The position numbers were made by a program, and so were the translations under genes. Shown in pieces: positions 8,285 to 29,534 of a stretch of DNA of 64,000 nt. The DNA lies in NCBI RefSeq assembly GCF_024436035.1, contig NZ_JANFNG010000012.1:62001-126000 (forward strand), in the 5' to 3' direction. The notes under the pieces are model-generated. The model did not search any database. It was not told the DNA's origin and saw only the letters and a list, made by a program, of their open reading frames with translations. Each line of letters starts with the position of its first letter. Position 1 is the first letter of the stretch. The stretch is from Streptomyces humicola. GTDB lineage: Bacteria; Actinomycetota; Actinomycetes; Streptomycetales; Streptomycetaceae.

Positions 8285-8978
8285 CGACAGCGCGGTGGTC
8301 CGCGCCGCACTGCGAGCCGTCCTCGGGACGGACGTGGTCGGAGAGGCGCGGGGCGGCGTGGAGGCGGTTGCGGCGGCACGTCGCCTTCACCCCGAGGTGG
8401 TGCTCCTCGACGTGCGGATGCCGGGCGGCGGCGGCCTGGCCGCGCTCCCTGAACTGGTCGCGTCGGGTGCGGCCGTGCTGATGCTGACCTACAGCGGTGA
8501 AGGCGACGTGGTGCGGGAGGCGGTGCGGATGGGCGCGGCCGGCTATCTGGTGCACGGCGAGTTCGACACGGCCGGGCTGACGGCGGCCGTGCGCGACGCG
8601 GCGTCAGGCCGCGCTCACCTCACGCCGACCGCGGCGACGGCTGTGCTCGCGGGGGTACGGGCGGCTGCCGAAGGAGCCGCCGAAGGGGCTGCGCAGGGGA
8701 CGGCCGGCGGTGTACCTTTGCAACCGCAACGGAATTTGCATCTGCAATCCGATGTGGGCGATGCGCGCGCTCGGTTCGGCCTCAGCCAACGGGAGGGGCA
8801 GATCATGGAGTTGGTTGCCGACGGCTTGAGCAATCCGCAGATCGCCGCCGCCTGCTTCGTCAGCGAGAAGACGGTCAAGAACCACATCAACCGCATCTTC
8901 GCCAAGCTGGGCGCAACCCGCCGCGGCCAGGCCATCGCCGTATGGCTGGGTCGGCGGAGGGCCGGGGCGTGCCCATGA
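8265..8978 (+). CDS. NarL/LuxR-family response regulator paired with the Tad histidine kinase
   Basis: A 237-residue DNA-binding regulator. The receiver domain has acidic residues at 7-8 and the phosphorylation site D49 (VVLLDVRMPG). The usual Lys of the YLxKG motif is replaced (YLVHGEF). An Ala/Gly-rich linker leads to a LuxR HTH (LSQREGQIMELVADGLSNPQIAAACFVSEKTVKNHI). The start is a TTG at 8265, the only one that preserves the first receiver strand (RILVVDD); it lies inside the kinase gene. The pair probably controls pilus expression, inferred from operon position. Confidence 0.9.
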   Translation: MRILVVDDSAVVRAALRAVLGTDVVGEARGGVEAVAAARRLHPEVVLLDVRMPGGGGLAALPELVASGAAVLMLTYSGEGDVVREAVRMGAAGYLVHGEFDTAGLTAAVRDAASGRAHLTPTAATAVLAGVRAAAEGAAEGAAQGTAGGVPLQPQRNLHLQSDVGDARARFGLSQREGQIMELVADGLSNPQIAAACFVSEKTVKNHINRIFAKLGATRRGQAIAVWLGRRRAGACP

Positions 8979-9101
8979 GCAGCCGCGCCAGGACGAGGAT
9001 TTGGGCCCGTGGACCCTGGGTGCGGGGCGTGACCGCGTCGTACGCTTCCCGTGACCGACGGGGGGAAGGACGGGGACAACCGCCGAGGGGCAGGGGCCGA
9101 G

Positions 9102-9317
9102 ATGAACGCATGGGTGACGCGACGGATCACGGCGTTTCGCGCACGCATGACAGCACACGCCACAGCACACGCGGACGAGGGCCAGACGTCGTTCGAGTAC
9201 CTGGGGATCGCGGTGGTGATCGCGGTGATCATCGGCGTGCTGGCGAGCACGACAAGCATCGGACAGGCCGTCCTCAACGGCATCCTCAACGAGATCACAA
9301 AGATCACGAGCCACTGA
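9102..9317 (+). CDS. flp: Flp-type major pilin
   Basis: A 71-residue Flp pilin. The start is the ATG at 9102 after GGGGCCGAG; an earlier frame opening at 9051 is rejected. The prepilin site is G27|QTSFEYLG with Glu at +5 and the Flp hallmark Tyr at +6, followed by a long hydrophobic helix (IAVVIAVIIGVLAS). It is the main filament subunit, exported through TadA/B/C and cleaved by a prepilin peptidase such as the one at 12450. The leader is long (27 residues). Its stop overlaps the probable start of the TadG-like gene. Confidence 0.92.
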   Translation: MNAWVTRRITAFRARMTAHATAHADEGQTSFEYLGIAVVIAVIIGVLASTTSIGQAVLNGILNEITKITSH

Positions 9318-9898
9318 ACCGGGCCGCAGGCCCCCGCAGCGAGCAAGGACAGACCCTCCCGCTCTACATCGTGGCGGTAGCGGCACTGCTCTTGCTCGCT
9401 GTCGCTTTCTTCGCCGTGGGCCAGGCCTCGGCCGTGCGCGGCGACGCCCAGACCGCCGCCGATGCCGCCGCGCTGGCGGCCGCACGCAGCGAACGCGACG
9501 GCGTGCAGGACGCTTTGCTGAAGGCCCTCACCAGCGGCAATCTCGCGCAACTCGGCACTCTGCTCCAGCCGGGAGCCAATGACTGTGCCGCCGCAGGCCA
9601 GTACGCCGCCGACAACCGTGCGAGCGTGACGAGGTGCGATCCAGCCAACGGAGAGCCCGGCTACACGGTCAAGGTCATCAGCCTCGACACGGTCGGCGGC
9701 TCCCCGGTCCAGGGGACGCAGTCCATGCACGCCACGGCGACGGCCACCGCCGTCATCGAACCCCGCTGCACGGTGCAGGGAAAGAACGGGAACTCCATCC
9801 GCCTCACCTGTGACGGCAACGACATCTCGATCGACCCGACCGCAGCAGGCTTCCACCTCGACCTGGCCGATTTCTTCACCGTTCATCTCAGCACGTAA
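9314..9898 (+). CDS. TadG-like / Tad-domain pilus protein (probable CTG start)
   Basis: A protein of about 194 residues with a short basic N-terminus, one membrane helix (residues 17-36) and a TadG signature (GDAQTAADAAALAAARSERDG). It carries a Cys pair and a secreted C-terminal domain. No ATG or GTG lies near the conserved beginning; the frame stays open upstream inside flp. The most likely start is a CTG at 9314 in a CTGA overlap with the flp stop. The leader shows G12|QTLPLY, where Leu replaces the usual Glu at +5, so cleavage by the prepilin peptidase is uncertain. Confidence 0.75.
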   Translation: MNRAAGPRSEQGQTLPLYIVAVAALLLLAVAFFAVGQASAVRGDAQTAADAAALAAARSERDGVQDALLKALTSGNLAQLGTLLQPGANDCAAAGQYAADNRASVTRCDPANGEPGYTVKVISLDTVGGSPVQGTQSMHATATATAVIEPRCTVQGKNGNSIRLTCDGNDISIDPTAAGFHLDLADFFTVHLST

Positions 9899-9909
9899 GG
9901 ACCGGGGAC

Positions 9910-10503
9910 ATGAGCATGGTGCAGAGCTCAACCAGCCGTAAGGGGGCGGCGGTCGGCACGCTCGCGTTCTGCCTGGCCCTGGCGCTCACCGGCTGCGGTG
10001 GCGGCGGCAGTTCCCACGCGAAGCCCACGGCGTCCCCGACGAAGAACGCGTCCGGAGGAGCCCAGTCCACCGGCGGTCAGCCCGCGGCGGCACCGAGCCC
10101 CTCCCAGACGCTCGCGCAGCTGAAGGGCGAGGACGGCATGGAGGTCGACATCACCTCGGCCATCCGGGACGCGGGCGGCTTCGTCACCGTGCAGGGCACC
10201 ATCACCAACAACGGAACCAGCCCCTTCAACGCCACCTCGTGGACGGGCCAGGAGATGGCCGTCCAGTCGTCGGGACCGTCCGTCGCCGGCGCCGTCCTCG
10301 TCGACGAGACCGGCAAGAAGCGCTACTACGTGCTCCGCGACACCGAGGGCAAGTGCTTGTGCACGATGGGCCTGGTCGGGATCGAGCCCAAGCAGTCCGT
10401 CCCGTTCTTCGCCCAGTTCCCCGCGCCGCCGCAGTCCACCACGCAGGTCGACTTCGAGCTGCCCACCATGCCGCCGGCCACCATCCAGATCTCCCAGGGA
10501 TGA
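9910..10503 (+). CDS. Lipoprotein of the Tad locus
   Basis: A 197-residue lipoprotein with a hydrophobic leader ending in the lipobox LTGC (Cys29), a Gly/Ser/Pro/Thr-rich spacer at about 30-70, and a beta-rich C-terminal domain with no family I recognise (FVTVQGTITNNGTSPFN suggests an immunoglobulin-like or DUF4352-like fold). A CLC pair occurs at KCLCTMGL. The ATG follows GGACCGGGGAC, 11 bases after the TadG-like gene. It shares an ATGA overlap with the OmpA-like gene, so the two proteins may act together at the cell surface. Confidence 0.82.
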   Translation: MSMVQSSTSRKGAAVGTLAFCLALALTGCGGGGSSHAKPTASPTKNASGGAQSTGGQPAAAPSPSQTLAQLKGEDGMEVDITSAIRDAGGFVTVQGTITNNGTSPFNATSWTGQEMAVQSSGPSVAGAVLVDETGKKRYYVLRDTEGKCLCTMGLVGIEPKQSVPFFAQFPAPPQSTTQVDFELPTMPPATIQISQG

Positions 10504-23700: not shown

Positions 23701-24100
23701 GCCACCACCGTCGTCCAAGCCGTCGTCGACACCCACGCTCGCCGCATCACCGACAGCAGCGCCGGCCACCCGCCCCCCGGTCCTGCTCCACTAAGACGGC
23801 ACCTGCGATCTTCTGGACCAGGCCACCGACCCTCCGCTGGGAGCCCGCTCCAAACACCTCCCCCGCCTCCAGGCCAACTTGCCCTACACCCTCGCGCTCT
23901 ACACCGACGGCCTCATCGAACGCCGCGGCGAGGACATCGACGCCGGCCTGCAACGCCTCACCGACACGCTCGCCCGCTCTGCCCGCCATACCCCCGAACG
24001 CCTCGCCGACGCCCCGCTCGCGCACCTCGGCGTCAGCAGCGGCGCCCGCGACGACATCGCCCTGATCGTCTTCCGCCTTGACCCGCGCGCCGACACCTGA
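23701..24100 (+). pseudogene. Broken SpoIIE/PP2C-type phosphatase, C-terminal part
   Basis: Two reading frames together give the end of a PP2C_SpoIIE domain: AVVDTHARRITDSSAGHPPP, then, after a one-base frameshift at about 23782 and an in-frame TAA at 23791-23793, DGTCDLLDQATDPPLGARS, LPYTLALYTDGLIERRGEDID and ARDDIALIVFRLD. The N-terminal sensor and first half of the phosphatase are missing. A TTG-initiated 73-residue frame remains open from 23879 but could not form the active site. A full-length paralogue lies at 31289-33448. Confidence 0.8.
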
Positions 24101-24149
24101 GCGCCAACAGGTGGCGAACCCCGCCGCGTGTGGGTGGCGGATCCGGCTA

Positions 24150-24255
24150 TCCTGTTGTCAGGTGCAACTCCCAGGTGTGGCCGTACAGTCGGCCAGTTCC
24201 GCCGCTCGGGTGGAACGATCCGGTGTGATTCCGGGACCATGCGGTCAGACCCCGC
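24150..24255 (+). promoter_or_regulatory. FMN riboswitch (RFN element)
   Basis: Two conserved RFN blocks are recognisable: GGTGCAACTCCC at 24161-24172 and GATCCGGTGTGATTCCGGG at 24217-24235, with CAGACC-type sequence after it. They lie 86-190 bases upstream of the riboflavin-gene start. The 3' closing block departs from consensus. A GGCCCG/CGGGCC hairpin (24261-24282) follows and may be the expression platform. FMN binding would lower expression. Confidence 0.7.
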
Positions 24256-24340
24256 CCCTCGGCCCGCGGCTTTTCTCGGGCCCTCTCAAACCATCAACGG
24301 CGCTGTCGCAGCGCCTTGTGACGATGAGGGGTGTTGGCAC

Positions 24341-25561
24341 GTGTTCACTGGACGCATCGCTGAAGTCGGCGTCATCGACAGCATTGATGAGGACCTGGTC
24401 GGGGTGCGGTCACCCCGAGCCGCCGCCGGCGCCCAGCCGGGCGGCTCGGTATGCGTGAACGGAGTGCGGCTCACCGTACGGGCACTGTCCGACGGGGTCG
24501 CTGTCGCCACTGTGGCGGCGGAGACGAAGCGCCGGTCGACGTTTGATGTGCTCGCCGCCGGAGAACCGGTCAACGTCGAGCTTCCGCTGGCCGTCGGTGA
24601 CCGGCTCGACGGGCATCTGGTCCAGGGCTATGTGGACGCGGTCGGCAAGGTGGTGCGGGTCGAGGACGAGGGTGGCGGGTGCAGCCGGGTGTGGATCCGC
24701 CCGCCGGAGCGGTCGATGTCGCAGTTGTTCGCCAAGGCTCCGCTCGCGGTCGACGGGGTCAGCCTGACCGTCGCCGAGCGGCTGCGCGACCGGTTTTCGG
24801 TGGTCGTCCTTCCCGCTACCCGAGCGGCCACCACTTTGGAGCGGCTGGAGCCGGGGGTGAGGGTCAACCTCGAAGTGGACCTGATCAGCCGACTCACCAC
24901 GCGCAACCCCGACCGGGCACGCGGCTTCATCGACCGGATCGTCACAGGGCTGCCGTGGGCCGGTCATGTCGCCGGGAAACCGGGTGTGGAGAAGGTGGTG
25001 CGCCAACTGGCCGCGGGGGGAGGCGTGGTGGTGTGGGACCCGGCGACTGAAGGGGAGGGAGACGTGATCTTCGCCGGTGCCCAGCTGCCGCCCCAAGCAT
25101 TCACGTTCCTGCTTACCGAGGCATGCGGCCACACCACGGTGCCGTGCGCGCCGGAGGTGTTGGAGCGGCTGGAGATCGGCCCTATCCCGGGTGAGGGTGA
25201 CCGGCAGGGCACCGCCATGCACGTACCCGTCGACCTGGCCGCCACCAGCACCGGCGTCTCGGCGGCGGAACGGGCAGCGACCGTCCGCCGCCTGGCCGAC
25301 CCCGACGCACGGCCGGATGATTTCCTGCGCCCCGGCCATGTCTTCCCGCTGCGCGCCCGTCCAGGGCTGCTCGCCGAACGGCAAGGACACACCGAAGCCA
25401 CCGTCGCGCTGTGCCTGGCGGCCGGCCTGCCGCCGGTCGGTGTGTGCTGCGAGGTGATGAATCCGGACGGTCTCATGGCCCAGGCTGCTGACTTGGAAGC
25501 CGCCGCGCTGCGCTGGGGGATGCCGCTGGTGGACATCTGCGACCTGCGGGCCTGGCTGTGA
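24341..25561 (+). CDS. Riboflavin synthase-DHBP synthase fusion (RibE-RibB)
   Basis: A 406-residue fusion. Residues 1-200 contain two lumazine-binding (riboflavin synthase alpha) repeats, beginning MFTGRIAEVG, with second repeat LAVDGVSLTV. Residues about 210-406 are a 3,4-dihydroxy-2-butanone-4-phosphate synthase (EGEGDVIFA, QGTAMH, GHVFPLRA, GHTEA). There is no GTP cyclohydrolase II domain, which usually follows RibB in RibBA. Some conserved residues differ: RLTV for CLTV, QGYVD for QGHVD, and ATEGEGD for DRENEGD. The GTG start gives the normal N-terminus. An FMN riboswitch precedes it; the truncated methyltransferase gene overlaps its stop. Confidence 0.85.
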   Translation: MFTGRIAEVGVIDSIDEDLVGVRSPRAAAGAQPGGSVCVNGVRLTVRALSDGVAVATVAAETKRRSTFDVLAAGEPVNVELPLAVGDRLDGHLVQGYVDAVGKVVRVEDEGGGCSRVWIRPPERSMSQLFAKAPLAVDGVSLTVAERLRDRFSVVVLPATRAATTLERLEPGVRVNLEVDLISRLTTRNPDRARGFIDRIVTGLPWAGHVAGKPGVEKVVRQLAAGGGVVVWDPATEGEGDVIFAGAQLPPQAFTFLLTEACGHTTVPCAPEVLERLEIGPIPGEGDRQGTAMHVPVDLAATSTGVSAAERAATVRRLADPDARPDDFLRPGHVFPLRARPGLLAERQGHTEATVALCLAAGLPPVGVCCEVMNPDGLMAQAADLEAAALRWGMPLVDICDLRAWL

Positions 25562-25801
25562 GCACGAGGGGGTCCGATGTCTACGACGACCCGGGGTTCT
25601 TTGCGAGATACCAGCGCATGCGCGCTGAACATGCGGGGCTCAACGAAGATCTCGAACAGCCTGCCTTGGCCCGCATGCTCCCGGACGTGGCCGGGATGGA
25701 CGTGCTCGACCTCGGGTGTGGCGCCGGCTCCCTCGCGCGCCGACTCGCTGAGTGCGGCGCCCGGTCGGTGCTCGGCGTGGATGCGTCAGCGCGAATGCTG
25801 G
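25558..25801 (+). pseudogene. Class I SAM methyltransferase, truncated after motif I/II
   Basis: The frame starts at a GTG in a GTGA overlap with the rib fusion gene and encodes about 81 residues of a methyltransferase: FFARYQRMRAEHAGLNEDLE, motif I VLDLGCGAGSLA and the following acidic loop LGVDASARML. At about 25801 the homology stops and the frame runs into the antisense of an IS630 fragment. Two thirds of the enzyme are missing, so it is inactive. Confidence 0.82.
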
Positions 25802-25900
25802 GAGGATTCTTCCTGGTGATCGGCGGTGTGCCGGTCGAGCCTGGCCAGCAGATCGTCCAGGTCGGAGGTGGTGAACTTCCACTGGAACGGCTGTGCCGTG
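25786..25900 (-). mobile_element. IS630-family transposase C-terminal remnant
   Basis: On the minus strand a 38-codon stretch reads AQPFQWKFTTSDLDDLLARL, the typical C-terminus of streptomycete IS630 transposases, ending at a TGA (25788-25786). It abuts the methyltransferase break. The rest of the element is absent. Confidence 0.72.
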
Positions 25901-25908
25901 GCGTGGTG

Positions 25909-26115
25909 TCAGTCCTCCTTGGGCGGCCGTCCGCGGCGCGGGATCGGCTGGACCGCGCGTGGGAGGCGTCCCGCCTCCGACAAGGCGCGGCGCAGCAGGA
26001 ACTCGATCTGGGCATTGGTGCTGCGCAGCTCGTCCGCCGCCCACCGCGCGAGCGCGTCGTGCACGGCCGGGTCGAGCCGCAGCAGCACCTGCTTGCGTTC
26101 GGGCCTTTCCGTCAC
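25909..26115 (-). CDS. Small ribbon-helix-helix-like DNA-binding protein
   Basis: A 68-residue basic protein: KQVLLRLDPAVHDALARWAA, NAQIEFLLRRALSEAG, and a GRPPK tail. This is the layout of Arc/CopG-like ribbon-helix-helix proteins. The GTG start lies in a GTGA overlap with the end of the SPFH gene, so it is translationally coupled to it. The pairing is found in streptomycetes; the RHH protein may regulate the operon or act as an antitoxin-like factor, but no toxin is visible. Confidence 0.82.
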   Translation of the reverse strand: MTERPERKQVLLRLDPAVHDALARWAADELRSTNAQIEFLLRRALSEAGRLPRAVQPIPRRGRPPKED

Positions 26116-27053
26116 TGGTACAGGGAGCCGGTGTTGAGGACCGGCTGGGCCGCGCGTTCGCCGCAGAGCACGACCAGCAGATTGCTGACCATCGCGGCCT
26201 TGCGCTCCTCGTCGAGCTCGACCAGGCCCTGCTCGGCGATCCGGGCGAGCGCGGACTCCACCATGCCGACGGCGCCGGCGACGATGGTCTTCCGCGCGGA
26301 GACGATCGCGCCCGCCTGCTGGCGCTGGAGCATCGAGGAGGCGATCTCCGGTGCGTACGCGAGGTGGGTGAAGCGGGACTCGATGATCTTCACTCCGGCC
26401 GATTCGACGCGCGCCGCGATCTCGGCGGAGAGCTGCTCGGTGATGATCTCGGCGTTCTCGCGCAGGCTCAGCTCCTCCTCGCCGTGGGCGTCGTAGGCGT
26501 ACTTGGTGGCGATGTGGCGCACGGCGGTGTCCGTCTGGATTGCCACGAAATCCGTAAAGTTGTCCACTTCGAAGACGGCCTGCGCGGTGTCCGCGACCTG
26601 CCACACCACGACGCAGGCGATCTCGATCGGGTTGCCGTAGGCGTCGTTGACCTTCAACACCTCGGTCTCGTTGTTCCGCAGCCGGGTGGAGATCGTGCGG
26701 CGGCTGGTGAACGGGTTGACCCAGCGCAACCCGTCCTGCCGGATCGTGCCCTGGTAGCGGCCGAAGAGCTGGCAGACCCGGGCCTGGCCGGGGGCGACCT
26801 GGGTCAGGCCGCGCAGCATGACGACGTCGGCGGCGATCACCAGGGCGCCGCAGATGGTCAGGGCGGCGGAGGCGCCGCCGTGGCCGCCGCTCCTCGCCCC
26901 GGCGCCGGAGACGATCAGCGCGATGCCGCCGGCCAGCACGAGCAGCGCGAGCAGCAGGAACGGCAGGCCCGGCATGCCGAGTGCGCGGCGTTCCGTGATC
27001 CGCGGCCTGGGCATCTCCGGTATGTCGGTGGGCCGGTTCTCGACGGCGGTCAT
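26112..27053 (-). CDS. SPFH/Band-7 domain membrane protein
   Basis: A 313-residue flotillin/prohibitin-like protein. Two hydrophobic helices at about 27-70 precede the SPFH domain (GLRWVNPFTSRRTISTRLRN, VVVWQVADTAQAVFEVDNF) and a helical tail with SARKTIVAGAVGMVESAL. Such proteins form membrane microdomain scaffolds. The ATG at 27053 follows AAGGGGGAG; the longer frame to 27119 is rejected. It is the first gene of a two-gene operon with the RHH protein. Confidence 0.92.
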   Translation of the reverse strand: MTAVENRPTDIPEMPRPRITERRALGMPGLPFLLLALLVLAGGIALIVSGAGARSGGHGGASAALTICGALVIAADVVMLRGLTQVAPGQARVCQLFGRYQGTIRQDGLRWVNPFTSRRTISTRLRNNETEVLKVNDAYGNPIEIACVVVWQVADTAQAVFEVDNFTDFVAIQTDTAVRHIATKYAYDAHGEEELSLRENAEIITEQLSAEIAARVESAGVKIIESRFTHLAYAPEIASSMLQRQQAGAIVSARKTIVAGAVGMVESALARIAEQGLVELDEERKAAMVSNLLVVLCGERAAQPVLNTGSLYQ

Positions 27054-27128
27054 GGCTCCCCCTTGAGACGTGGTAAGGCGTTCGGCCTGGTGGCGGCCGG
27101 TCGGTGTGCGGTTGCTCACCCTAGCAAG

Positions 27129-27138
27129 GTGATATCAC
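27129..27138. promoter_or_regulatory. Palindrome GTGATATCAC upstream of the SPFH gene
   Basis: A perfect ten-base palindrome 76 bases before the SPFH start, in the 270-base gap shared with the divergent penicillin-binding protein gene. It may be an operator; the regulator is unknown. Confidence 0.3.
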
Positions 27139-27323
27139 ATTTTCCGAGGCCCTAAACCGGGGACGGGTGATCCTGAATGGTTCCCATGGGGCGGCGTGGG
27201 CCTTCTCACGTACCGAAATTATGCGACTTTAGGCAATTAAAGGCCGGAACCGGTGCTAGCTTCGTCGATCGCGCGTTCGTGCGAGCGCGTGCGCGACTGT
27301 TGGCGAGGTGAGGAGACCGGTAC

Positions 27324-29534
27324 GTGGGCAGCAGGGGCAAAGCCAGAGCCAGGACCGAGGCCAAGGAGATCGGCACGCCGCGCCGCCGCCGCTGGCTGCG
27401 CAGGCTGCTCGGTACCACCCTCGGCGTGATCCTGCTCGGCATGGCCGGCTTCATCGCGCTGTACTTCATGGTCGACGTCCCCAGCGCGAACGCCCAGGCG
27501 ACCGCCCAGGCGAACGTCTACAAGACCGCCGACGGCAAGGTCATCGCCCGCACCGGCGACGTCAACCGCGAGATCGTGCCGCTCAGCCAGGTACCCGTCG
27601 CCGTCCAGCACGCCTTCGTCGCCGCCGAGAACAAGACCTTCTACACCGACGGCGGCGTCGATCTGCGCGGCATGGCCCGCGCCGCCTACGACACCCTGAC
27701 CGGCAAGGGCCTGCAGGGCGGCTCGACGATCACGCAGCAGTACGTCAAGAACTACTACCTCGACCAGAACCAGACAGTCACCCGCAAGGTCAAGGAACTG
27801 ATCATCTCGCTCAAGGTCGATCAGGAGAAGAGCAAGGAAGAGATCCTCGACGGCTACCTCAACACCGCGTACTTCGGGCGCGGCGCCTACGGGATCCAGG
27901 CCGCGTCCCAGGCCTACTACGGCGTCGACGTCAGCAAGCTCAGCCCCGAGCAGGGTGCCTACCTCGCGGCGCTGGTCCAGGCCCCCAGCCAGTACGACGT
28001 GTCGACGGCCACCGCCGCCGGCAAGCAGCTCGCCCTGGCCCGCTGGAACTACGTCCTGGACAACATGGTCGGCATGCACTGGCTCGACCCCGCGCAGCGC
28101 CGCACCGCGGTCTTCCCTCAGCCCGTCAGCCCCAAGGGCGCGGCCGGCGTCACCGGCCAGACCGGCTACCTCATCGACGCGGCCGACAGGCAGCTGACCA
28201 GCAGCGGCGCGCTCACCGACGGCCAGCTCGCCGCCGGCGGATGGACGATCACGCTCACCATCGACCCGGCCAAGCAGAAGGCGCTGGAGAACGCGGTCAG
28301 AACGCAGCTGACCGACAACCTCTCCTCCTCCAGCTCCATCGACCAGCGCGTGCAGCCCGGGGCCGTCTCGGTCGACCCGAAGACCGGTGACGTCGTCGCG
28401 CTCTACGGCGGCGCCGGCTACCCGCAGCACTACACCGACAACGCGACCCGCGACGACTACCAGGTGGCCTCCACCTTCAAGCCGATCGTGTTCGCCTCCG
28501 CGCTGGAGAACAACTCCACGACGCAGGACGGCCGCACCATCGGCGCCGACACGATCTACGACGGCACCAGCGGCCGCCCGGTCCAGGGCTCCGTCACGCC
28601 GTTCGCCCCGCCCAACGAGGACGACCGTTCCTACGGGAAGATCACCGTGCAGACCGCGATGGACAACTCGGTCAACTCGGTCTTCGCGCAGCTCGCCGTC
28701 GACGTCGGCCTCGACAAGGTCGCGCAGACCGCGCAGACGCTCGGCATGCCCTCCGACACCAAGGGGCTCAACGACGGTCCGGCAGTCGCGCTCGGCACGA
28801 TGGGCGCCAGCCCCATGACGATGGCCGGGATCTACGCGACCATCGACCACCACGGCCAGAAGGTCACCCCCTCGATCGTGAAGTCGGCGGTGCGGGGCGG
28901 CGAGGCGGTCACCCTGCCCGACACCATCGGCAACCAGGTGATCAGCCGCTCCACGGCGGACACCGTGACCTCGGTGCTCACCGGCGTCGTCAACTCCGGT
29001 ACCGGTACCGCGGCCGAGCAGGCGAGCCAGGTGGCCGGCAAGACGGGTACCTCCGACGACAACAAGTCGGCGTGGTTCACCGGCTACACCCCGGACCTGG
29101 TCACTTCCGTCGGCCTGTTCGGCCAGGACCCGAAGACCGGCGCCCAGGTCTCCCTGACCGGTGCGGGCGGCGTCGGCCGGGTCAACGGCGGCGGCTTCCC
29201 GGCACAGATCTGGGGCGCCTACACCAAGGCGGCGCTCAGCGGTGAGTCGCCGCTCCAGTTCGACTTGCAGACCAATCAGGGCGCCGCGGTGCAGCCGCAG
29301 ACCACGCCGTCCTCGACGCCGTCGGCCACGCAGAGCCCGTCGGGGACGCCGAGCACCACGCCGTCGCAGAGCCCGGCGCCGACGCCGAGCACTACCGGCC
29401 CGGCGACCACACCCCCTGCCGTGCCGACGCCCACCGTGACGGCCCCCTCGGCCACGCCGACGGACACGGGCACCGGCGGCGCCACCCCGCCGGGCAGCGG
29501 CCCGACCCGGTTCCCGCGGGGTCAGACCGGCTGA
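27324..29534 (+). CDS. Class A penicillin-binding protein
   Basis: A 736-residue bifunctional peptidoglycan glycosyltransferase/transpeptidase. A short basic cytoplasmic tail and one helix (about 29-50) anchor it. The GT51 domain has AENKTFY (catalytic E102) and QGGSTITQQYVKNYY. The transpeptidase domain has STFK (S383), SVN and KTG (K573). A Pro/Ser/Thr-rich tail of about 80 residues ends the protein. GTG start after GGTGAGGAG. It makes and cross-links wall glycan outside the membrane. It converges on the catalase gene across a bidirectional terminator. Confidence 0.95.
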   Translation: MGSRGKARARTEAKEIGTPRRRRWLRRLLGTTLGVILLGMAGFIALYFMVDVPSANAQATAQANVYKTADGKVIARTGDVNREIVPLSQVPVAVQHAFVAAENKTFYTDGGVDLRGMARAAYDTLTGKGLQGGSTITQQYVKNYYLDQNQTVTRKVKELIISLKVDQEKSKEEILDGYLNTAYFGRGAYGIQAASQAYYGVDVSKLSPEQGAYLAALVQAPSQYDVSTATAAGKQLALARWNYVLDNMVGMHWLDPAQRRTAVFPQPVSPKGAAGVTGQTGYLIDAADRQLTSSGALTDGQLAAGGWTITLTIDPAKQKALENAVRTQLTDNLSSSSSIDQRVQPGAVSVDPKTGDVVALYGGAGYPQHYTDNATRDDYQVASTFKPIVFASALENNSTTQDGRTIGADTIYDGTSGRPVQGSVTPFAPPNEDDRSYGKITVQTAMDNSVNSVFAQLAVDVGLDKVAQTAQTLGMPSDTKGLNDGPAVALGTMGASPMTMAGIYATIDHHGQKVTPSIVKSAVRGGEAVTLPDTIGNQVISRSTADTVTSVLTGVVNSGTGTAAEQASQVAGKTGTSDDNKSAWFTGYTPDLVTSVGLFGQDPKTGAQVSLTGAGGVGRVNGGGFPAQIWGAYTKAALSGESPLQFDLQTNQGAAVQPQTTPSSTPSATQSPSGTPSTTPSQSPAPTPSTTGPATTPPAVPTPTVTAPSATPTDTGTGGATPPGSGPTRFPRGQTG

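What the first reader, a model, noticed from the sequence alone, without database searches (positions are those of the whole stretch)
24150..25561. Riboswitch-controlled RibE-RibB fusion with altered active-site residues
Riboflavin synthase and DHBP synthase are joined in one protein without the usual GTP cyclohydrolase II. CLTV is RLTV, QGHVD is QGYVD and DRENEGD is ATEGEGD, while metal-binding acids and GHTEA persist. With an FMN riboswitch upstream and a methyltransferase remnant downstream, it could be the rest of a flavin-analogue pathway or a lumazine-binding protein with new function.
Basis: partly seen in the sequence, partly recalled or inferred. Interest (0 to 1): 0.7.

Follow-up and report, generated by a model that had tools for sequence, protein, structure and literature searches.

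The report
Variant flavin-riboswitch leader controlling RibE-RibB paralogue
A scattered family of soil actinomycetes carries a second, altered copy of two vitamin B2 enzymes fused into one protein, behind an RNA element that descends from the vitamin B2 (FMN) riboswitch but has lost the parts that bind FMN, so both probably serve an unidentified flavin-related compound.

Summary
The fusion is real: a 406-aa protein (24341-25561, GTG start) with two lumazine-binding barrels plus a DHBP-synthase domain and no GTP cyclohydrolase II. It is a paralogue: the same genome has a normal ribE/ribBA operon with a normal FMN riboswitch on another contig. It belongs to a monophyletic, patchy actinomycete family (17 intact members plus one truncated). 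In 67 canonical RibE loci C48 and H102 never vary; in the family C48 is always lost (R/G) and H102 drifts. The DHBP-synthase metal and catalytic residues persist, but the active-site loop is shortened and N39 is lost. The strongest part is the leader. All 17 intact members carry a covarying RNA descended from the FMN riboswitch. It has lost P1, J1/2, A48, A85, G98 and A99, fails Rfam's FMN threshold (about 21 versus 66 bits), and in 294 genomes of the order occurs only before this gene. A class I methyltransferase gene overlaps the fusion in 10 loci and is truncated here. Likely function: DHBP production plus lumazine/flavin binding for an unidentified metabolite, controlled by a variant riboswitch with a non-FMN ligand. 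Ligand and product are inferred.

The parts
24148..24153 (+). TATCCT, -10-like promoter hexamer, 13 nt upstream of P2
   Evidence: Positional scan over 16 leaders: best offset is 13 nt upstream of P2, mean score 3.24 against 1.55 (sd 0.30) over all offsets. No start site was measured.
24159..24268 (+). Leader RNA descended from the FMN riboswitch (P2 to P6, no P1)
   Evidence: 102 bits with model R1 (the window is in the training set); 21.2 bits with Rfam FMN, threshold 66.2; 28 pairs, 98% of cells paired, 9 pairs with double changes, 0/500 shuffles as high.
24161..24171 (+). P2 with T-loop (GGTGCAACTCC; family GGTGYGATTCC)
   Evidence: Invariant GG/CC pairs in 16 of 16; alignment A1.
24178..24195 (+). 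P3, extended to 6 bp, pairing the position equivalent to A48
   Evidence: 3 pairs with double changes, 100% of cells paired.
24196..24216 (+). P4
   Evidence: 3 pairs with double changes, 97.6% of cells paired.
24219..24236 (+). P5 with T-loop (CCGGTGTGATTCCGG)
   Evidence: 2 pairs with double changes, 95% of cells paired; matches Rfam FMN positions 86-103.
24241..24255 (+). P6; a Watson-Crick pair stands where the FMN riboswitch has A85 and G98
   Evidence: G-C in 15, A-U in 1; pocket numbering from PMC7573352.
24256..24261 (+). CCCCTC, candidate anti-Shine-Dalgarno strand
   Evidence: Pairs with 24326-24331 in the minimum-energy fold; not better than shuffles for this locus alone.
24326..24331 (+). 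GAGGGG, candidate Shine-Dalgarno
   Evidence: About 10 nt before the GTG start.
24341..25561 (+). RibE-RibB fusion paralogue, 406 aa, GTG start
   Evidence: Pfam; 16 orthologues aligned from the same start.
24341..24910 (+). Riboflavin-synthase-like half; C48 is R43 (codon 24467-24469), H102 is Y97 (codon 24629-24631)
24989..25552 (+). DHBP-synthase half; altered loop WDPATEGEGD (ATEGEGD at 25043-25063), metal ligands kept
   Evidence: PF00926 residues 217-404; residue counts.
25558..25803 (+). Truncated class I methyltransferase, overlapping the fusion's stop codon
   Evidence: 59% identity to residues 3-82 of the intact 252-aa protein; homology then ends.

Best explanation
This is a horizontally spread actinomycete cassette: a paralogous RibE-RibB fusion whose DHBP-synthase half is probably catalytic, whose riboflavin-synthase half probably binds but no longer dismutates lumazine, and which in many loci is paired with a methyltransferase. 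A leader RNA descended from the FMN riboswitch controls its expression, probably at translation. It keeps the peripheral architecture (P2 and P5 T-loops, P3, P4, P6) but has lost the P1 regulatory helix and most of the FMN pocket, so it most likely senses a different ligand, plausibly a lumazine- or flavin-derived compound made or bound by the fusion. Proposed switch: transcription starts at P2; the strand 3' of P6 pairs with the Shine-Dalgarno region and competes with P6, so a ligand that stabilises P2/P6 would change access to the start codon. Shown by computation: gene architecture, family, residue losses, leader conservation and covariation, exclusive association of leader and gene in the genomes searched. 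Inferred: enzymatic activities, transcription start, ligand, product and direction of the switch.
For: Canonical ribE, ribBA and FMN riboswitch elsewhere in the same genome. Monophyletic family with patchy distribution and a placement of the window beside Amycolatopsis rather than the other Streptomycetaceae member. Purifying selection on both halves. C48 and H102 invariant in 67 canonical loci, lost or drifting here; E38, E40, D42, H136, R150, H153 and E174 kept in all. Leader: 41 invariant columns, covariation above all shuffles, 102 bits or more only in the three genomes with the fusion among 294, next best 41.8 bits, and 108.4 bits for a leader not used in training. Rfam FMN score about 20 against 66.2. 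No P1 beyond chance. Shine-Dalgarno complementarity of 8-11 nt in the Nonomuraea/Planobispora/Saccharothrix leaders.
Against: No binding, enzyme or expression data exist. H102 persists in Kribbella and Actinomadura, so loss of riboflavin synthase activity is not proven for all members. Anti-Shine-Dalgarno pairing is not significant in the window, Amycolatopsis or Kribbella taken singly. The methyltransferase is absent in six intact loci without replacement elsewhere where that was searched. Pocket positions were mapped by eye. The training leaders are partly close relatives, which inflates covariation counts.
Confidence: 0.55

Rival explanations
1. It is an ordinary second riboflavin-biosynthesis enzyme, a bifunctional RibE/RibB that boosts riboflavin, regulated by a diverged FMN riboswitch that still senses FMN.
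For: Both domains are recognisable, RibE scores just under the NCBIfam cut-off (152.4 against 155), DHBP-synthase catalytic residues persist, and an ordinary RibE-RibB fusion inside a normal rib operon exists elsewhere (L150).
Against: That ordinary fusion keeps C48, H102 and RENEGD, whereas this family does not. The FMN pocket and P1 are lost. The canonical operon is present.
Confidence: 0.17
2. It is a self-protection copy: an inhibitor-resistant DHBP synthase that protects against natural inhibitors of riboflavin synthesis such as phosphonothrixin, which inhibits DHBP synthase.
For: Altered active-site loop with kept catalytic residues; duplicate housekeeping enzymes are known self-immunity genes, and phosphonates against riboflavin enzymes are known (PMC12871164).
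Against: No PEP-mutase motif EDKx(4-6)NS in the flanks held; no shared biosynthetic neighbours. It explains neither the degenerate RibE half nor the leader.
Confidence: 0.08
3. The leader no longer senses a small molecule; it is a relic or protein-binding element (for example autoregulation by the fusion protein) that kept the T-loop scaffold.
For: Loss of P1 and of the pocket; the leader goes strictly with this one gene. T-loop motifs are common structural modules (general knowledge).
Against: 41 invariant columns and covariation at a level seen in aptamers. FMN-riboswitch variants with a changed ligand are known: the Clostridium subtype 2 variant binds lumichrome and lumiflavin (PMC11477304).
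Confidence: 0.15

Closest known systems
FMN riboswitch (RFN element, Rfam RF00050)
   Same: P2 and P5 T-loops, P3, P4 and P6 in the same order and similar sequence.
   Different: No P1 or J1/2, pocket nucleotides A48, A85, G98 and A99 gone, about 20 bits against a threshold of 66.2.
Subtype 2 variant FMN riboswitch of Clostridium and Atopobium (lumichrome/lumiflavin sensor, as described in PMC11477304)
   Same: Also a rare FMN-riboswitch derivative with a changed pocket.
   Different: That variant lies in Clostridium and Atopobium; in C. difficile it precedes an EmrB/QacA-type efflux gene. This one lies in actinomycetes before a RibE-RibB fusion. The primary paper was not held, so a nucleotide-level comparison was not made.
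Riboflavin synthase RibE (PF00677 x2)
   Same: Two lumazine-binding barrels, C-barrel residues K137 and T148 always kept, S146 and D185 nearly always.
   Different: C48 lost in all, H102 in 11 of 17, trimer-helix Tyr replaced, fused to RibB.
DHBP synthase RibB and RibBA (PF00926)
   Same: All metal and catalytic residues examined except R37 and N39.
   Different: Active-site loop one residue shorter, N39 lost, R37 variable; no GTP cyclohydrolase II.
Class I methyltransferases 3BKW and 3G5L
   Same: The intact partner methyltransferase (252 aa) matches over nearly its full length, E 4.3e-57 and 4.8e-43.
   Different: Those structures are uncharacterised; the partner is below every NCBIfam equivalog cut-off listed. 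In the window only a remnant is left.

Membership tests
FMN riboswitch RF00050 | score above the curated gathering threshold (66.2 bits) | tested here: not met
   21.2 bits in the window; no gathering hit at the fusion in 15 related loci; 19.5-21.2 bits or unlisted at relaxed threshold.
FMN riboswitch RF00050 | P1 regulatory helix with J1/2 (G10, G11) | tested here: not met
   5' and 3' flanks pair no better than shuffles; -10-like box 13 nt before P2. The genome's canonical element shows P1 GCGCACT/AGTGCGC.
FMN riboswitch RF00050 | isoalloxazine pocket A48, A85, G98, A99 | tested here: not met
   Positions paired or replaced in alignment A1; pocket list from PMC7573352. Mapping by eye.
FMN riboswitch RF00050 | paired T-loops in P2 and P5, with P3 and P6 | tested here: met
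   In Kribbella the P5 loop is shortened.
FMN riboswitch RF00050 | binds FMN | not testable with these tools
   Needs in-line probing.
Subtype 2 variant FMN riboswitch (lumichrome/lumiflavin sensor) | upstream of an EmrB/QacA efflux gene; found in Clostridium or Atopobium | tested here: not met
   Actinomycete leader directly before the fusion gene in all intact members; description in PMC11477304.
Subtype 2 variant FMN riboswitch (lumichrome/lumiflavin sensor) | its consensus sequence and structure | not tested
   Primary paper not held.
Riboflavin synthase (RibE) | two lumazine-binding barrels | tested here: met
   PF00677, two stretches.
Riboflavin synthase (RibE) | N-barrel catalytic residues C48 and H102 | tested here: not met
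   R43 and Y97 in the window; 67/67 C and H in canonical loci.
Riboflavin synthase (RibE) | NCBIfam equivalog cut-off | tested here: not met
   PRK09289 152.4 against 155; TIGR00187 117.3 against 156.6.
DHBP synthase (RibB) | metal and catalytic residues E38, E40, D42, H153, E174 | tested here: met
   17 of 17 in the family.
DHBP synthase (RibB) | intact RENEGD loop (R37, N39) | tested here: not met
   ATEGEGD in the window; N39 67/67 in canonical loci.
DHBP synthase (RibB) | NCBIfam TIGR00506 cut-off | tested here: not met
   142.4 against 177.45.
DHBP synthase (RibB) | makes DHBP from ribulose 5-phosphate | not testable with these tools
   Needs enzyme assay.
RibBA | C-terminal GTP cyclohydrolase II | tested here: not met
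   No such domain found and the frame ends after the RibB domain.

The most novel reading that the evidence does not exclude
The leader is a new riboswitch class evolved from the FMN riboswitch by loss of P1 and remodelling of the pocket. It senses a metabolite made or handled by the RibE-RibB fusion (a lumazine or flavin derivative, often methylated), that is, an undescribed flavin-related pathway in actinomycetes.
Probability: 0.38. Interest if true: 0.8.

Novelty: new variant of a known kind. Interest (0 to 1): 0.6.

Why it matters
Few riboswitches are known to have changed ligand. One that dropped its regulatory helix and pocket, yet stayed tied to a rib-type gene, would show how an aptamer fold is reused and would point to an unrecognised flavin or lumazine metabolite. 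The one-to-one pairing of leader and enzyme in 17 genomes makes both the ligand and the product directly testable.

Tried and rejected
Ordinary RibE-RibB fusion: rejected as the simple reading, because a true ordinary fusion (L150, in a normal rib operon) keeps all catalytic residues. L020-L085 as further fusions: rejected, none is a single open frame across both domains. A conserved P1 from further upstream: not found (the canonical control of that script returned no rows because its pattern failed, so the canonical P1 is read directly). Hidden methyltransferase orthologues elsewhere in genomes lacking it at the locus: only distant paralogues at about 1e-18. Phosphonate self-resistance: no PEP-mutase motif in the flanks held. 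Conserved wider cluster: none within about 9 kb. Plasmid spread: the only close plasmid-collection hit is an 11.85 Mb Nonomuraea gerenzanensis replicon, evidently a chromosome. AlphaFold model: RibE half confident, DHBP-synthase half poor because the alignment is shallow, so not used. Primary papers on FMN-variant riboswitches and on the S. davaonensis riboswitch were not held. Literature searches for a described RibE-RibB fusion of this kind found none, which is weak evidence because most subscription papers are missing.

Full report
The gene. A single frame at 24341-25561 encodes 406 aa. Pfam gives two Lum_binding stretches and one DHBP_synthase domain, and nothing of GTP cyclohydrolase II. 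The family alignment starts at MFTG, so the GTG at 24341 is the likely start; the longer frame from 24128 runs through the leader. All NCBIfam equivalog cut-offs listed for RibE, RibB and RibBA are missed, one of the RibE models only narrowly.

It is a paralogue. The same genome has separate canonical ribE and ribBA on contig C22, 43-46% identical to the matching halves, behind a canonical FMN riboswitch of 99.3 bits. Riboflavin supply therefore need not depend on this gene.

It is a family. Named genomes give 14 relatives at 61-70% identity, and two more come from unnamed relatives. One of the 14, in Amycolatopsis acidicola (L019), is truncated at its 5' end and has no leader. A further intact member lies in Nonomuraea gerenzanensis. 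With the window that makes 17 intact members. The family is rare: 3 of 61 relatives including the window's own genome, and 3 of 395 genomes of the class pass 1e-90, one of which (L150) is an unrelated ordinary fusion. In a tree the family is separated from the genome's own RibE+RibB and from L150 with full support; only two canonical rows were included and the root is a midpoint. The window sits beside Amycolatopsis (95/92), while L086, from the same family as the window, groups with Nonomuraea, Planobispora and Saccharothrix (91/88). Horizontal spread is the natural reading. In close pairs dN/dS is about 0.13 to 0.26, and the RibE half alone is also under purifying selection, about 0.14 to 0.35.

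Residues. I read 12 RibE and 16 RibB positions in 67 canonical loci and in 17 family rows. C48 and H102 of riboflavin synthase are invariant in the canonical set; the family never has C48 (R in 9, G in 7, one row truncated) and has H102 in only 6 of 17 (Kribbella and Actinomadura). The C-barrel residues K137 and T148 are always kept, and S146 and D185 nearly always. The trimer-helix Tyr is Leu or Met where aligned. In the DHBP-synthase half, E38, E40, D42, H136, R150, H153 and E174 are kept in all rows, while N39 is replaced and the loop is one residue shorter. In this RibB count the row of L016 may come from the canonical ribBA that lies in the same locus, which would explain the single N39. 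The functional roles of these residues rest on general knowledge of the E. coli enzymes; no held paper confirmed them.

The leader. Upstream of all 16 intact members first aligned lies a conserved RNA. Alignment A1 has 41 invariant columns. The consensus structure has 28 pairs, 98% of cells paired and 9 pairs with changes on both sides; none of 500 shuffles reaches these three-way values. It is an FMN-riboswitch descendant: the P2 and P5 T-loops, P3, P4 and P6 line up with the genome's own canonical element. It is not an FMN riboswitch by the curated test: 21.2 bits against 66.2 in the window and about 20 in the others that were listed at all. Model R1 over 294 genomes of the order finds three hits above 100 bits, exactly the three genomes with the fusion; the next, at most 41.8 bits, include the loci of canonical FMN riboswitches. 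The N. gerenzanensis leader, not used in training, scores 108.4 bits directly upstream of its fusion gene.

What was lost. PMC7573352 lists the F. nucleatum pocket: A85, G98 and A99 on the ring side, G47, A48 and A49 in the junction before P4, and G10, G11, G32, G62 and G84 at the phosphate; ligand binding stabilises P1. In the variant the region that should hold P1 and J1/2 is not conserved and does not pair with the 3' flank beyond chance. A -10-like hexamer sits at a fixed distance, 13 nt upstream of P2, about 5.6 standard deviations above the mean over offsets. The A48 position is now paired in an extended P3, A85/G98 are replaced by a Watson-Crick pair (G-C in 15, A-U in 1), and A99 is gone. 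The correspondence was made by eye and the numbering relies on the recalled F. nucleatum sequence, which agrees with every nucleotide named in the paper.

Expression platform. In the Nonomuraea and Planobispora leaders, and less strongly in Saccharothrix, the strand just after P6 (CCACCUCUCG or a close form) is complementary to the Shine-Dalgarno region over 8-11 nt. The window folds the same way (CCCCUC with GAGGGG), and the sequestering helix overlaps P6 in the predicted folds. Kribbella and Amycolatopsis show no clear pairing. Translational control with P6 and sequestration in competition is plausible, not shown in general.

The methyltransferase. Ten loci carry a class I methyltransferase gene that overlaps or abuts the fusion's stop codon, similar to the uncharacterised 3BKW and 3G5L. 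In the window it is cut after about 82 residues. The two intact Amycolatopsis members, Planobispora, N. terrae, N. gerenzanensis and Actinomadura lack it at the locus, and the genomes searched among these hold no orthologue elsewhere. It is therefore a frequent partner, not an obligatory one.

Interpretation. The best reading is a neofunctionalised cassette: DHBP made by the RibB half, a lumazine or flavin bound by the RibE half, a methyltransferase modifying something in many lineages, and a leader that no longer recognises FMN. Ligand and product are inferred. An ordinary duplicate, a self-protection copy and a non-sensing leader are the rivals; each has a clear test.

Noticed in passing
window about 23795-24101 (+): Remnant of a PP2C/SpoIIE-type phosphatase C-terminus (LYTDGLIERRGEDIDAGLQRL... 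in frame), recognised by eye; the cassette thus lies between two truncated genes.
   Followed up: partly
window 26112-29534: SPFH-domain gene and a penicillin-binding protein gene lie next to the cassette. Both are adjacent in relative G006 (82% and 73% identity), whose 18 kb stretch lacks the alpha/beta-hydrolase, beta-helix and fusion genes, so the cassette side looks inserted.
   Followed up: partly
L150 1501-2781 (genome G634): An independent, ordinary RibE-RibB fusion with all catalytic residues, inside a ribD - ribE/ribB - ribA - ribH operon of a 2 Mb actinomycete.
   Followed up: yes
L019 9001-10017 (Amycolatopsis acidicola): A decayed member of the family: truncated at the 5' end and without the leader.
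   Followed up: yes
L016 (Kribbella sp. VKM Ac-2527) 1352-2193 and 8839-10206: A canonical FMN riboswitch with ribBA-type gene lies about 7 kb from the variant leader and fusion.
   Followed up: partly
A1 rows L009, L012, L013, L016, L017 (Kribbella leaders): Kribbella leaders have a long P3 loop and a shortened P5 loop (no UU), so the P3-P5 kissing contact may be rebuilt there while P2-P6 is kept.
   Followed up: no
NZ_LT559118.1 (plasmids collection): An 11.85 Mb Nonomuraea gerenzanensis replicon is labelled 'plasmid I'; it is evidently the chromosome.
   Followed up: no
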